From NCBI GenBank assembly GCA_937873275.1, contig CALMRC010000156.1:1-41236 (forward strand): a DNA stretch of 41,236 bases, written 5' to 3'. Under the pieces are notes generated by a model. It saw nothing but the letters and a program-made list of their open reading frames with translations. It was not told the origin of the DNA and did not search any database. The stretch comes from an uncultured Spirochaetota bacterium (GTDB taxonomy: Bacteria; Spirochaetota; Spirochaetia; Treponematales; UBA12059). The first letter of the stretch is position 1. The number at the start of each line of letters is the position of its first letter. Shown one piece after another: positions 1,751 to 5,110 of the stretch. The translations under genes and the position numbers were made by a program.

Positions 1751-3441
1751 AAGCCCTCCTCCGCCGGCCCGCGGCGGCGGTCTGGGCGTCCCTCCTGCTC
1801 GCCGCCTGCGTGTCGACGCCTCCGCCCCCGGACGCCGGGACGGCCTTGACCATGCAGGGCCGCTCCGACGAATCCGCGGCGGTCAAGGCGGAGGTGGAGG
1901 CCCGGCTGGCCCGGGGAACCCCCGAATCCCTGGAGCAGGCCCGGACCGTGGCCGAATCCTCGAAGGCCCTGGCACCCTCGGAAATCGTCCTGTACCGGTG
2001 GTACGCCGTGGAGCTGGGCCGCCTGGCCTACCCGGACAAGCTCGGCACCGCGCCCCTGGCGCCGGAGCCGCCTCCGGGACACCCCTGGGCACGGGCCTTC
2101 GCGGACGCCCGGACCGGCCGCATCGGCACGCCCCGGGAAGGGGCGGACCCCCTCGAGCTCCTGGCCCTGGCGTCGGCCCTCTTCCGGGGGGACTCCAAGG
2201 AGACGTCCCGGGCGGCCTCCCTGGCCCTGGACCTTTTCGCCCAGTCCCGGCTGGAATCGCCCCTGGCCGAGCACCTCCGGGGCCTCCTGGCCGAGCGGTC
2301 CGGCAACGCCGACGCCGCCCGGGACCGCTACGTCTCGGCCTTCGTGTCCGCCCCGGACTGCTATCCCGCCCTGTTCGGCGCCGCCCGCACCCTCATCGCC
2401 CTGGACCGGCCGAAGGAGGCCGTGGACATCCTGGCGGCATCCAAGGCGGCCTACGGGGAGATGTTCGGCTGGGTGCGACTGATGGCCCTGGCCCTCTACG
2501 ACTCCGGACGGTACGACGAGGCCGGCCCCTTCGTCCTGCGGGTCCTCCGGGAGGATCCCATGGATTCCCGGATCCTCCTGGTCCGGGCGGACATGCTGGT
2601 CCGGGCCGGGGACTACCGGCAGGCCACGCCCCTCCTGGACGCCTACGGAGAGGTGGACGCCGCGGACCGGCGCTACCTCATGCTCCGGGGCCGGGTGGCC
2701 TGGGAAGGGTCCCGCAACAAGGACGAGGCCCTCCGGTATTTCCGGAAGCTCCTGTCGATCTATCCCGATGACGCGGAAGCCCTCCTCTCGGCGGCCCGCA
2801 TCCTGGCCCAAGGCACGGCGGCGGAACGGGGGGAGGCCTACCTCATGGCCGGCCGCGTACTGGGAAAGAACCCCGCGGATTCCGGCGCCCTGCGGATCCT
2901 CCTGGCCGAGGAGATCCGGCGAAAGGATTGGTCCGCCGCCCTGGCTACCCTGGATCGGCTCCGGGCCGCGGATCCCGAGTACCGGGACCGGGCGGCCATG
3001 CACTTGGTGTACCGCTCCGCGGGCCGTTTCGACGAGGCCTTCCGGGTGGCTACGGAATGGCGGACCGCCTCCCCGGACTCCGAGGACGCCCGGATCGCCT
3101 ACATCCGTTCCTTGATCGACCGCAAGGACACGGCCGGCGCCCGGGACCTCATCGCCCGAGCCCTGATCGACAAGGGATCCGCCCGGTTCCGCTCGAGCCT
3201 CTACTTCCTCCAGAGTCTGGTCCAGCCCAACGAGGAGGCGGCCCTGAACTCCCTGCGTTCCAGCCTGGTGGAGAACGTGCAGAACCTGGAAGCCCTCACG
3301 GCCATGTACGACATCTACATGCGCCAGAAGGACGCCCAGAAGGCGCGGTTCTACCTCCGCCAGGCCCTGGCCGTGGCGCCCGACGACCCCGGCCTGGCCC
3401 GCCGCCGGGAGGAGCTCATCCGCCTGGGTCTGGCCCCCTGA
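1747..3441 (+). CDS. TPR repeat lipoprotein, large
   Basis: A 564-residue protein. The signal peptide has basic residues and a LLLAAC lipobox (Cys about 21) followed by a Pro-rich linker. The body is a long array of TPR-like helical pairs, with typical A/L/Y/A/P spacing in segments such as the ones ending KEAVDIL, DEAGPFVLRVL, DEALRYFRKLLSIYPDDAEAL and the C-terminal KARFYLRQALAVAPDD. This predicts a membrane-anchored protein-interaction scaffold, possibly for envelope assembly or export; the partner is unknown. It overlaps the preceding membrane protein by 4 nt. The short C-terminal tail after the last repeat suggests the protein is complete. Confidence 0.82.
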   Translation: MKALLRRPAAAVWASLLLAACVSTPPPPDAGTALTMQGRSDESAAVKAEVEARLARGTPESLEQARTVAESSKALAPSEIVLYRWYAVELGRLAYPDKLGTAPLAPEPPPGHPWARAFADARTGRIGTPREGADPLELLALASALFRGDSKETSRAASLALDLFAQSRLESPLAEHLRGLLAERSGNADAARDRYVSAFVSAPDCYPALFGAARTLIALDRPKEAVDILAASKAAYGEMFGWVRLMALALYDSGRYDEAGPFVLRVLREDPMDSRILLVRADMLVRAGDYRQATPLLDAYGEVDAADRRYLMLRGRVAWEGSRNKDEALRYFRKLLSIYPDDAEALLSAARILAQGTAAERGEAYLMAGRVLGKNPADSGALRILLAEEIRRKDWSAALATLDRLRAADPEYRDRAAMHLVYRSAGRFDEAFRVATEWRTASPDSEDARIAYIRSLIDRKDTAGARDLIARALIDKGSARFRSSLYFLQSLVQPNEEAALNSLRSSLVENVQNLEALTAMYDIYMRQKDAQKARFYLRQALAVAPDDPGLARRREELIRLGLAP

Positions 3442-3527
3442 GCCGCGCCTCCCGGCCCGGCCGGGCCGCTTCCCGATACGACCCCGCTTCCTCCCGAACG
3501 CCCCGTCCTCGAAGCCGGACACCTGAA

Positions 3528-4370
3528 TTGGGCGACTTCCTGGAAACCGCCTACGCCCAGCTGGCCCGGCCGGAGCTGATCGATCCGGATCCTCTCGCGG
3601 TGACCCGGGAGTACGCGGCTCCCGGGGACCGGGAGGTCGCGGGGATCGCGGCCGCCTGTCTGGCCCTGGGCTCCGCCCCCCTCATCGTGCGGGCCGCCCG
3701 GGAGGTCCTGGCACCCCTCGGCTCCTCCCCGGCCTCCGCCCTGGCCGCCCTGGAGGACGCCGATCTTTCCCGCCTCCTGTCCGGCTTCCGGTACCGCTTC
3801 TTCGGGGGGGAGGACCTGGCGGCCCTCCTGTCCGCGGTCCGGAACGCCCGGGCCCGGCACGGATCCCTGGAGGCCTTGTTCCGGGCCGGGGACGATCCAT
3901 CGGAGCCGACGATCGTCCGGGGGGCGGACCGGTTCGTCGCCGCCCTGGAGGACCTCGCGGGAGACCGGTGGACACGTCCTCCCGGAAAGCCTCCCTGGCG
4001 GGACAACCTTCTCCCCCGCCCCCGTCGGGGTTCCGCCTGCAAACGCCTGTTCCTGTACCTTCGCTGGATGGTCCGGAAGGACGCGATCGATCCCGGCGGC
4101 TGGTCCGGCGTGGATACCGCCCGGCTGGTCGTGCCCCTGGACACCCACATGGGGGCGGCCTGTCGACGCCTCGGCCTCCTCGCCCGCAGGGCCGACGACC
4201 TGGCGGCCGCCCTGGAGGCCACCGAAGCTTTCCGCCGCTTCCGGCCGGACGATCCCGTCCGGTACGACTTCGCCCTGACCCGGCCGGGGATCCACCCCTG
4301 CCTGGACGCGGAATCCTACTTCCGGTGTTTCGACGGCGCCCCGATTCCTCCGCCGGACCGCCGCCCTTGA
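3528..4370 (+). CDS. DUF2400 / TIGR02757 family protein
   Basis: About 280 residues. It matches the DUF2400 family by its characteristic signatures: KRLFLYLRWMVRKDAID followed by a Gly-Trp, then VVPLDTHMGAACRRLGL, then a C-terminal block with RFRPDDPVRYDFALTRPGIHP. The region around the conserved DTH is reminiscent of helix-hairpin-helix DNA glycosylase folds, but no activity is established that I know of. The frame is open far upstream; TTG 3528 is the most plausible start because it follows the previous stop (3441) and gives a normal family length. An internal start cannot be excluded. It is co-oriented with the TPR genes, 86 nt downstream. Confidence 0.8.
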   Translation: MGDFLETAYAQLARPELIDPDPLAVTREYAAPGDREVAGIAAACLALGSAPLIVRAAREVLAPLGSSPASALAALEDADLSRLLSGFRYRFFGGEDLAALLSAVRNARARHGSLEALFRAGDDPSEPTIVRGADRFVAALEDLAGDRWTRPPGKPPWRDNLLPRPRRGSACKRLFLYLRWMVRKDAIDPGGWSGVDTARLVVPLDTHMGAACRRLGLLARRADDLAAALEATEAFRRFRPDDPVRYDFALTRPGIHPCLDAESYFRCFDGAPIPPPDRRP

Positions 4371-4418
4371 CCCTGGAGGAAGGTCCATGCTAGATTCTTC
4401 GGGCGCCCAACGGCGCGA

Positions 4419-4444
4419 CGGGCAATAGCGCAGGTGGTTAGCGT
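4419..4444 (+). pseudogene. tRNA-Pro 5' fragment (acceptor strand plus D arm)
   Basis: These 26 bases are identical to the first 26 positions of the intact tRNA at 4477, ending at the D stem (GCGT). The sequence then switches to unrelated DNA beginning CGTCACG. Joining 4444 to 4581 would recreate the tRNA-Pro sequence into the anticodon arm, so this is the 5' part of a tRNA gene interrupted by an insertion at 4445-4580. Confidence 0.85.
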
Positions 4445-4582
4445 CGTCACGACGATATATAAATAGATTTTTTGGTCGGGCAATAGCGCAGGTGGTTAGC
4501 GTACAAGTCTGGGGGACTTGGGGTCCGCGGTTCGAGTCCGCGTTGCCCGACCGAAAAATCTACCATAAGAATCCGTGACGAC
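4443..4582. repeat. Inverted repeats bounding the insertion that carries the intact tRNA-Pro
   Basis: GTCGTCACG (4443-4451) is the exact reverse complement of CGTGACGAC (4574-4582). Inside, the arm at 4464-4476 pairs with the sequence just after the tRNA (4551-4563), extending the acceptor stem by about 13 bp with one G-T wobble. The intact tRNA thus sits at the tip of a long imperfect hairpin. Confidence 0.7.
4477..4550 (+). tRNA. tRNA-Pro, anticodon GGG
   Basis: A complete cloverleaf of 74 nt. Acceptor CGGGCAA (4477-4483) pairs with TTGCCCG (4543-4549), discriminator A4550. The D stem is GCGC/GCGT. The anticodon stem CAAGT/ACTTG encloses loop CTGGGGG, with anticodon GGG at 4511-4513. The T stem CGCGG/CCGCG encloses loop TTCGAGT. 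CCA is not encoded (ACCG follows). It is the only complete tRNA in the window and lies inside a fragmented second copy of itself. Confidence 0.93.
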
Positions 4583-4595
4583 AAGTCTGGGGATC

Positions 4596-4623
4596 GCTGA
4601 ACAAGGCTCACGCCTTGTTCAGC
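4596..4623 (+). other. Perfect 12-bp hairpin H1 in repeat copy A
   Basis: GCTGAACAAGGC, loop TCAC, GCCTTGTTCAGC. An identical hairpin occurs in copy B at 4963-4990. Confidence 0.85.
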
Positions 4624-4625
4624 TG

Positions 4626-4652
4626 GCAGTTTTCGGATCCGCCGAAAACTGC
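4626..4652 (+). other. Perfect 11-bp hairpin H2 in repeat copy A
   Basis: GCAGTTTTCGG and CCGAAAACTGC around a 5-nt loop (ATCCG here, CTCCG in copy B at 4993-5019). The only difference between copies lies in the loop. Confidence 0.85.
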
Positions 4653-4675
4653 ATGAAGACCCAAGGGGTCCGCGG

Positions 4676-4777
4676 TTCGAGTCCGCGTTGCCCGAGAAGC
4701 GGTTTTCGGAAACGGAGACCGCTTTTTTATTTGGCGGCCGCGTTCTGACATGCCTTCTCGGGCAACGCGGACTCGAA
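4676..4777. repeat. 24-bp inverted repeat of the tRNA-Pro 3' end
   Basis: 4676-4699 (from the T arm, through the acceptor 3' strand and four flanking bases) is the exact reverse complement of 4754-4777. The intrinsic terminator lies between the arms. The inverted arm is a further partial copy of the tRNA 3' end on the minus strand. Confidence 0.85.
4698..4728 (+). terminator. Intrinsic terminator of the tRNA-Pro transcript
   Basis: Stem AGCGGT (4698-4703) and ACCGCT (4718-4723), with further weaker pairing inside, followed by a run of T to 4728. It directly follows the last plus-strand tRNA 3' end, so it probably terminated the original tRNA gene. Confidence 0.8.
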
Positions 4778-4789
4778 GGGTTTGAGCGG

Positions 4790-4823
4790 CTCCGGGAATC
4801 CGAGACGTCGAGGATTCCCGGAG
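4790..4823. other. 12-bp hairpin between repeat copies
   Basis: CTCCGGGAATCC (4790-4801) and GGATTCCCGGAG (4812-4823) are perfect inverted repeats around a 10-nt loop. No T-run follows, so it is not a standard terminator. A smaller AGGCC/GGCCT hairpin follows near 4828-4844. Confidence 0.65.
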
Positions 4824-4899
4824 CGAGAGGCCATGGACGGCCTCGAGAGCGAGAACCCCGGTCCGGAAGCCTCGGACAAGGACGTACGAGGCTGGAGGG

Positions 4900-5048
4900 C
4901 GAGTCCGCGTTGCCCGACCAAAAAATCTACCTCAAGAATCCGTGACGACAAGTCTGGGGATCGCTGAACAAGGCTCACGCCTTGTTCAGCTGGCAGTTTT
5001 CGGCTCCGCCGAAAACTGCATGAAGACCCAAAGGGTCCGCGGTTCGAG
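4900..5048 (+). repeat. 149-bp direct repeat, copy B
   Basis: The second copy of 4533-4681. It starts with the last 19 bases of tRNA-Pro and carries the same CGTGACGAC arm, anticodon-arm piece and two hairpins (4963-4990, 4993-5019). It ends in the T arm, after which the sequence diverges (GCGGG). No complete tRNA is associated with this copy. Confidence 0.9.
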
Positions 5049-5081
5049 GCGGGAAGCCGCGGTCCGCCGGCACTCGGGTTC

Positions 5082-5110
5082 TTGACACGGAATACCGGGA
5101 TCGATAGTAT
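5082..5110 (+). promoter_or_regulatory. Predicted promoter of the TetR-ABC operon
   Basis: A perfect TTGACA (5082-5087) and TAGTAT (5105-5110) are spaced by 17 bp. Transcription would start around 5117, at the edge of the operator palindrome. Confidence 0.75.

What the first reader, a model, noticed from the sequence alone, without database searches (positions are those of the whole stretch)
4419..4695. An intact tRNA-Pro nested inside a broken copy of the same tRNA
4419-4444 is the exact 5' part of tRNA-Pro; after 136 bp containing the complete tRNA, the broken copy resumes at 4581 with the anticodon arm and, after another insert, ends at 4695 next to a terminator. The 136-bp insert is bounded by inverted repeats (4443-4451, 4574-4582), and the inner acceptor stem is extended by about 13 bp. 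The insertions fall at the D/anticodon junction and in the anticodon loop, as intron or integration events would. I do not know a described element with this form.
Basis: seen in the sequence. Interest (0 to 1): 0.78.

Follow-up and report, generated by a model that had tools for sequence, protein, structure and literature searches.

The report
Working tRNA nested inside disabled tRNA
In a group of uncultured spirochaete bacteria, a complete proline tRNA gene sits inside a disabled copy of itself, held on a long RNA stem that several genera have preserved through matching mutations; it is a real, inherited arrangement and not an assembly error, although how it is processed is untested.

Summary
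The window comes from a spirochaete MAG (Treponematales). An intact tRNA-Pro(GGG) (4477-4550) lies in a 136-bp insert between positions 26 and 27 of a second tRNA-Pro copy (4419-4444 / 4581-4695). The second copy also has 5 nt of its anticodon stem replaced by a 72-nt hairpin pair.

The assembly is not at fault. A second species of the genus has the same nest at 88% identity, and five genomes from other genera, two of them in another family, have it too. A third species of the genus has an uninterrupted tRNA between the same flanks. Leader and trailer homology points to one origin with repeated partial or complete collapse.

The strongest signal is a 13-bp leader-trailer helix continuing the inner acceptor stem: 97% paired in 8 genomes, 9 of 13 pairs with double compensatory changes, 0/500 shuffles as good. 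The outer copy cannot decode, tracks the inner copy by concerted evolution, and is decaying or lost in some relatives.

Best reading: one transcript, one working tRNA carried on a helix inside a disabled tRNA frame, released by cutting that helix. Processing is inferred. I found no description of this form in the papers I could search. A separate uncatalogued, structured element family that copies the host tRNA's own 3' end follows many tRNAs here.

The parts
4367..4396 (+). Promoter-like site (TTGACC-N18-TAGATT) upstream of the outer copy; the only obvious promoter for the whole unit
   Evidence: By eye; same hexamers and spacing in G001 (L024), close match in plain G002 (L025). Overlaps the 3' end of the DUF2400 gene (2928-4370).
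4419..4444 (+). Outer tRNA-Pro, 5' part (positions 1-26: acceptor 5' strand and D arm)
   Evidence: 26/26 identical to inner tRNA; 25/25 identical in G001
4445..4580 (+). 136-bp insert between outer positions 26 and 27, holding the complete inner tRNA
   Evidence: uninterrupted site in G002 (L025)
4443..4451 (+). P1 5' strand (GTCGTCACG)
   Evidence: Pairs with 4574-4582; boundary stem of 6-14 bp in all six nests tested, p 0.006 to 5e-5 each
4464..4476 (+). Leader strand of the 13-bp helix that continues the inner acceptor stem
   Evidence: Covariation in 8 genomes
4477..4550 (+). Inner, intact tRNA-Pro(GGG)
   Evidence: ARAGORN; Rfam RF00005 56.8 bits
4550..4562 (+). Discriminator base and trailer strand of the 13-bp helix (ACCGAAAAATCTA)
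4574..4582 (+). P1 3' strand (CGTGACGAC)
4581..4592 (+). Outer tRNA-Pro, positions 27-38 (anticodon stem 5' strand and part of loop)
   Evidence: 12/12 identical to inner; positions 39-43 absent
4593..4664 (+). Replacement of outer positions 39-43: hairpins 4596-4623 and 4626-4652, linker, and 5' strand of a small hairpin GACCC-AAG-GGGTC (4658-4670)
   Evidence: Fold; hairpin 1 has compensated changes between G000 and G001; hairpin 2 25/27 and linker 12/12 identical against 79% in adjacent coding DNA
4592..4687 (-). Sub-threshold match of the opposite strand to Rfam TD-2 (RF03162)
   Evidence: 37.6 bits against cut-off 48.7; a lead only; G001 has no match
4665..4695 (+). Outer tRNA-Pro, positions 44-74 (variable region, T arm, acceptor 3' strand)
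   Evidence: 31/31 identical to inner; 30/31 in G001
4696..4732 (+). Intrinsic terminator closing the unit
   Evidence: Hairpin and T run, folds; same terminator directly after the plain tRNA of G002

Best explanation
The locus is one transcription unit of about 310 nt with one working tRNA, the inner tRNA-Pro(GGG). In an ancestor within Treponematales a copy of tRNA-Pro with self-complementary flanks came to lie between positions 26 and 27 of the resident tRNA-Pro gene. The resident copy then lost its anticodon stem and became a non-decoding frame that still supplies the promoter, acceptor stem, T arm and terminator. In the RNA the frame closes on itself and the inner precursor stands on a long helix (P1 plus a 13-bp helix continuous with its acceptor stem) where the anticodon arm should be. 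Because leader and 3' end are paired, RNase P should act poorly on the inner tRNA until the helix is cut or opened (RNase III is the likely candidate), after which the tRNA is trimmed and gets CCA. The outer halves are mostly passengers, kept similar to the inner copy by gene conversion and removable by recombination. SHOWN here: anatomy, recurrence, an uninterrupted site in the same genus, helix covariation, loss of the outer anticodon stem, collapse derivatives. INFERRED: single transcript, helix cleavage, inner tRNA charged and used, gene conversion.
For: Same nest at 88% over 518 bp in G001; nests in G010 (5' half), G016, G019 (family f1), G051 and G157 (family f5). Plain tRNA at the same site in G002. 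13-bp helix: 97.1% of cells paired, 9 of 13 pairs with double changes, 0/500 shuffles reach any of the five measures, sliding the partner by one column drops pairing to about 60%. Among 72 tRNA entries of G000 and G001 only Pro-GGG and Val-CAC have such a helix. P1 stem significant at every locus tested. Leaders and trailers homologous between most nests (z 3-9), so one origin. Recombination-type derivatives: G022 and G017 have the native leader, one tRNA and a nest-type trailer; G018 keeps the helix but has no outer halves. Outer halves match the inner copy of their own genome at lineage-specific positions (acceptor pair 7-66, D loop, T stem). [quoted passage not shown] RNase III cuts rRNA leader-trailer helices (PMC10250234).
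Against: No RNA data. The idea that the helix protects the inner tRNA from pairing with the outer halves is not specifically supported: predicted inner acceptor pairing is 0.97-0.99 natively and falls when leader and trailer are shuffled, but it also falls with the outer halves removed, and the plain G002 precursor itself scores 0.15. Hairpin 2 plus linker of the outer frame, absent from the inner tRNA and so not explained by conversion, are 37/39 identical between G000 and G001 against 79% in neighbouring coding DNA, which hints that the frame has a role. Horizontal transfer between families f1 and f5 is not excluded.
Confidence: 0.55

Rival explanations
1. The outer copy is itself a functional structured RNA: a natural 'tRNA scaffold' or tmRNA-like frame whose acceptor/T-arm domain is processed and stabilises or regulates release of the inner tRNA.
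For: Acceptor stem can still form in the outer copies read here with both halves (G000, G001, G016, G019, G157). In G000 and G001 hairpin 1 has compensated changes, and hairpin 2 plus linker are 37/39 identical. Fold z-scores -8.9 and -9.2. Engineered tRNA scaffolds keep acceptor, T and D arms and put an insert in place of the anticodon arm (PMC3753655).
Against: The outer copy is decaying in G016 (D arm shortened, T stem broken), lacks its 3' half in G010, is absent in G018, and the hairpin replacing the anticodon stem differs in every genus. Outer tRNA parts may be conserved only by gene conversion.
Confidence: 0.22
2. Origin rival: the insert is the eroded remnant of an integrated element that split tRNA-Pro and carried its own tRNA-Pro, as in tRNA-dependent lysogeny; everything but the tRNA and its flanks was deleted.
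For: [quoted passage not shown] tRNA-Pro(GGG) of this group lies next to a prophage integrase in one viral contig (L195, Pfam Phage_integrase 3.5e-19). P1 arms look like short imperfect direct as well as inverted repeats at the two junctions (by eye).
Against: No integrase or other gene in the insert; no match to the locus in phages or plasmids and no nest or 'TTTTTNGT+tRNA-Pro' in IMG/VR. The break lies at 26/27, not in the anticodon loop, and no clean core duplication is seen.
Confidence: 0.3
3. Pure relic: the nest arose by template switching or tandem duplication within the tRNA gene and neither the frame nor the helix has a role beyond leaving one intact tRNA.
For: Patchy: 7 nests among the order genomes examined (5 exact hits in 394, plus G010 and G016), none outside the order in a 393-genome phylum sample. 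In G051 the outer copy shares the inner leader TCTTGTTTTTTTGGT, as a duplication would leave. Collapse derivatives are viable.
Against: Helix covariation across 8 genomes and its retention in G018 without outer halves argue that at least the helix is maintained.
Confidence: 0.2
4. Assembly artefact: a collapsed or chimeric tandem tRNA repeat.
For: The window is from a 200-contig draft MAG; G051 has a run of N inside the nest.
Against: Independent assemblies of different species, including a 10-contig one, carry the nest with diverged linkers and compensated stems.
Confidence: 0.02

Closest known systems
tRNA-dependent lysogeny (mycobacteriophage Fionnbharth; PMC10865867)
   Different: Here the insert is 136 bp with no integrase or phage gene, is inherited in several genera, and the inner tRNA is co-oriented in what looks like a single transcription unit with a covarying stem
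Genomic islands in tRNA genes (Islander-type; PMC4383910)
   Same: Intact tRNA next to displaced tRNA fragments
   Different: Fragments lie on both sides of the intact tRNA; no island between them
Leader-trailer helices of rRNA precursors (PMC10250234)
   Same: Complementary flanks form a covarying helix around the mature RNA in one precursor
   Different: Encloses a tRNA, continues its acceptor stem without a break, and sits inside another tRNA's frame; RNase III cleavage not shown
Engineered tRNA scaffold (PMC3753655)
   Same: Acceptor, T and D arms kept, anticodon arm replaced by an RNA insert
   Different: Natural; the insert is itself a tRNA; protection not shown
Interrupted, split or permuted tRNA genes (established knowledge, no paper read)
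   Same: A tRNA gene broken into pieces
   Different: The broken copy lacks 5 nt of the anticodon stem and cannot be spliced into a decoding tRNA; a whole tRNA lies in the gap
TD-2 RNA (Rfam RF03162)
   Same: Two hairpins of similar sequence and order on the opposite strand of 4592-4687 and 4959-5053
   Different: Scores 37.6 and 42.8 are below the cut-off 48.7; G001's homologous hairpins do not match

Membership tests
tRNA (RF00005), inner copy | Full cloverleaf above Rfam cut-off | tested here: met
   56.8 bits, cut-off 29; ARAGORN Pro(ggg)
tRNA, outer copy | Foldable anticodon arm and full cloverleaf once the insert is removed | tested here: not met
   No gene found with hairpins kept; mis-called Cys without them; only with introns allowed does ARAGORN call a Pro; positions 39-43 missing
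Group I (or other catalogued) intron in tRNA | Match to an intron family | tested here: not met
   No intron family in the window at gathering score or in 4380-5100 at E up to 5
Split or permuted tRNA | Pieces together make one complete tRNA | tested here: not met
   Outer pieces 1-38 and 44-74 lack 39-43
tRNA-dependent lysogeny / tRNA-site integrative element | Same-isotype tRNA inside the insert | tested here: met
   Inner tRNA-Pro(GGG)
tRNA-dependent lysogeny / tRNA-site integrative element | Integrase or element genes in the insert | tested here: not met
   Insert is 136 bp, 74 of them the tRNA
tRNA-dependent lysogeny / tRNA-site integrative element | Short attachment core repeated at both junctions | tested here: inconclusive
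   Junctions GCGT|CGTCACGACG and CGTGACG|ACAAGTC share an imperfect near-palindromic stretch (by eye)
Transposon with terminal inverted repeats | Conserved terminal repeats and target duplication | tested here: not met
   P1 arms pair but differ in sequence between genera; no target duplication at 26|27
Leader-trailer helix (works like) | Helix with compensatory change enclosing the mature RNA | tested here: met
Leader-trailer helix (works like) | Processing by RNase III | not testable with these tools
   Needs RNA-end mapping
TD-2 RNA (RF03162) | Score at or above the family cut-off | tested here: not met
   37.6 and 42.8 against 48.7 bits

The most novel reading that the evidence does not exclude
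A tRNA gene that is its own maturation frame: a disabled outer tRNA, kept as a structured scaffold, presents an inner tRNA on a stem in place of its anticodon arm and controls how and when the inner tRNA is released. This would be a new type of bacterial tRNA gene organisation.
Probability: 0.2. Interest if true: 0.8.

Novelty: new variant of a known kind. Interest (0 to 1): 0.55.

Why it matters
tRNA genes are among the most constrained genes known, and a tRNA nested in a tRNA, inherited in several genera with a covarying stem, shows they can tolerate and stabilise such an insertion. It gives a testable case of how a precursor with paired leader and 3' end is matured and of how broken tRNA copies are preserved by concerted evolution. 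It may be an end point of the tRNA-splitting integrations so far described in living phages. It also warns annotation pipelines that count tRNA pieces as islands or pseudogenes.

Tried and rejected
Insulation hypothesis (helix needed to stop inner/outer mispairing): looked strong, but the control without outer halves and the plain precursor behaved alike, so it is not claimed. Intron: no family match. Phage or plasmid carriage: no match. A further nested tRNA in G000 or G001: none seen among the 30 tRNA loci fetched from each. Terminator role for the helix, as in tRNA-Val(CAC): rejected for Pro because the trailer is followed by no T run. Identity of the hairpin pair with TD-2: below cut-off. 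Literature on nested tRNA, extended precursor stems, tRNA 3'-end repeats and TD-2: no report of this form found; the primary TD-2 paper is not held.

Full report
SETTING. The window is contig C156 of a 3.6-Mb, 200-contig draft genome (97% complete). Related records are Spirochaetes MAGs ('Spirochaetae bacterium HGW-Spirochaetae-7', 'Spirochaetes bacterium RA.bin110', 'Treponema sp. UBA12037'). Handles: G001 and G002 same genus; G010, G016, G018, G019, G022 same family f1; G051 and G157 another family (f5) of the order. The order name Treponematales is my inference from the record titles and relatives, not a tool output.

ANATOMY. Upstream is a DUF2400 gene (2928-4370) whose end overlaps a promoter-like site. 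The outer tRNA-Pro starts at 4419 and runs to position 26 (4444). Then come 136 bp with P1 5' strand, leader, the intact tRNA-Pro(GGG) (4477-4550), trailer and P1 3' strand. The outer copy resumes at position 27 (4581-4592). Its positions 39-43 are replaced by 72 nt with two strong hairpins, and positions 44-74 follow (4665-4695), then a terminator. The predicted fold of the unit is -156 kcal/mol, z = -8.9; that of G001 is z = -9.2. The outer acceptor stem, P1, the inner tRNA with its extended stem, both hairpins, a small GACCC-AAG-GGGTC hairpin and the T arm all appear in the G000 minimum-energy structure.

NOT AN ARTEFACT. G001, a 10-contig assembly, has the same arrangement at 88% over 518 bp. 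A tailored pattern found exact nests in G000, G001, G019, G051 and G157 among 394 genomes of the order; G010 (5' half only) and G016 (decayed outer copy) add two. None was found outside the order in a 393-genome phylum sample, in IMG/VR, in phages or in plasmids. The pattern is specific to this tRNA-Pro, so other isotypes were not surveyed in that way. Among the tRNA loci fetched from G000 and G001 no other had a 5' partial copy of this kind upstream.

EMPTY AND INTERMEDIATE STATES. G002, same genus, has a single uninterrupted tRNA-Pro after the DUF2400 gene, with the outer copy's promoter in front and its terminator directly behind. G022 and G017 carry the native leader, one tRNA and a nest-type trailer, as recombination between the two 5' repeats would leave (G022 lies at a contig end). 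G018 has the extended stem without any outer half. Leaders and trailers are alignable between most nests well above shuffles (z 3-9; weaker for G051 and for some pairs with G001). I read this as one origin followed by partial or complete collapse in several lineages. Transfer between f1 and f5 is not excluded: in G051 and G157 no DUF2400 gene was found beside the tRNA.

THE HELIX. Thirteen pairs directly continue the inner acceptor stem (U-1 with A73 onward). In eight genomes 97.1% of cells pair; nine pairs have double changes, for example UUUUUU against AAAAAU blocks between G000 and G001. No shuffle in 500 reaches the observed value on any of the five measures, and sliding by one column drops pairing to 60-63%. 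Of 72 tRNA entries of G000 and G001, only Pro-GGG and Val-CAC have such a helix. For Val-CAC in G000 the helix ends in a T run and so looks like a terminator with the tRNA in its loop. The boundary stem P1 is 6-14 bp in six nests, p between 0.006 and 0.00005.

THE OUTER COPY. It cannot decode (positions 39-43 missing). In every nest read here the anticodon 3' strand is deleted or replaced, by different hairpins in different genera. Outer halves carry the lineage-specific bases of the inner copy of the same genome, so they evolve together, most simply by gene conversion. In G016 they decay and in G018 they are gone. Against pure relic status, the second hairpin and linker of G000/G001, which have no counterpart in the inner tRNA, are 37/39 identical while the neighbouring DUF2400 coding end is 79%. 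By hand calculation two or fewer differences in 39 at 21% divergence has a probability near 0.007; this is a post hoc comparison of two genomes.

A CLAIM I TESTED AND DROPPED. Shuffling leader and trailer ruins predicted inner folding inside the nest, which at first suggested insulation from the outer halves. The same loss occurs with the outer halves removed, and the plain G002 precursor is itself predicted poorly. The prediction method cannot separate these cases.

MECHANISM. Shown: one intact tRNA on a maintained helix inside a disabled copy, between one promoter-like site and one terminator. Inferred from literature: pairing of leader with the tRNA 3' RCCA hinders RNase P (PMC9433436), and leader-trailer helices are cut by RNase III (PMC10250234). 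So I expect helix cutting or opening before 5' maturation. How the nest arose is open. Self-duplication is suggested by G051, where outer and inner leaders share 15 nt. An eroded tRNA-splitting integration is suggested by tRNA-dependent lysogeny (PMC10865867) and by a viral contig with an integrase next to the same tRNA (L195).

SEPARATE DISCOVERY IN PASSING. Downstream of this tRNA and many others lies a structured element of about 130-220 nt. It begins with an inverted copy of the host tRNA's own 3' end and ends with a direct copy, sometimes with a copy of the terminator. RNAalifold on ten copies gives 26 pairs, 20 with at least one double change. A covariance model finds 12 copies in G000; each lies beside and downstream of a tRNA on the same strand when the positions are compared. 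In other genomes, of 30 loci examined, 24 lie 0-220 bp behind a tRNA of varying isotype, and the other 6 show no tRNA in the stretch held. It is absent from Rfam at gathering score in this window, and found in families f1, f4 and f5 but not in the one f3 genome or the one other-class genome tried. G001 has it behind Glu-TTC where G000 does not. This deserves its own study.

VERDICT. A real, inherited, unusual tRNA gene organisation with a conserved stem; function of the frame unproven. Interest 0.55.

Noticed in passing
window 4754-4917; 12 places in G000; L165-L194: Uncatalogued structured element family behind many tRNA genes: terminator, inverted copy of the tRNA's own 3' end, structured core, direct copy of that 3' end. 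12/12 model hits in G000 and 24/30 in other genomes follow a tRNA on the same strand; the ends match whichever tRNA is the host. Glu-TTC has it in G001 but not in G000.
   Followed up: partly
window 4903-5050: Third partial copy: after the downstream element, the inner tRNA's 3' end, trailer, P1 3' strand, outer anticodon strand and hairpins are repeated up to the T loop. Absent in G001; a similar tandem unit occurs in G051.
   Followed up: partly
L061 596-670 (G000), L092 (G001): tRNA-Val(CAC) has a 13-bp leader-trailer helix, followed by a T run in G000: the tRNA appears to sit in the loop of its own terminator. Similar extended stems in G029, G039 and G054 tRNA-Pro.
   Followed up: partly
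L006 (G010), L014 (G017): Tandem arrays of about 135-150 bp units behind tRNA-Pro, each with inverted and direct 13-16 nt copies of that genome's tRNA 3' end and a terminator-like hairpin.
   Followed up: no
window 4592-4687 and 4959-5053, minus strand: Sub-threshold matches to Rfam TD-2; TD-2 itself has about 60 dispersed copies in G024, so it behaves like a dispersed repeat there.
   Followed up: partly
L195 476-504 and 672-1970: IMG/VR contig with tRNA-Pro(GGG) followed by a phage integrase gene: this tRNA is probably a phage attachment site in the group.
   Followed up: partly
G006, G007, G020: Near-complete relatives (93-96%) with no match to tRNA-Pro(GGG); the gene may be dispensable or lost there. 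Not checked further.
   Followed up: no
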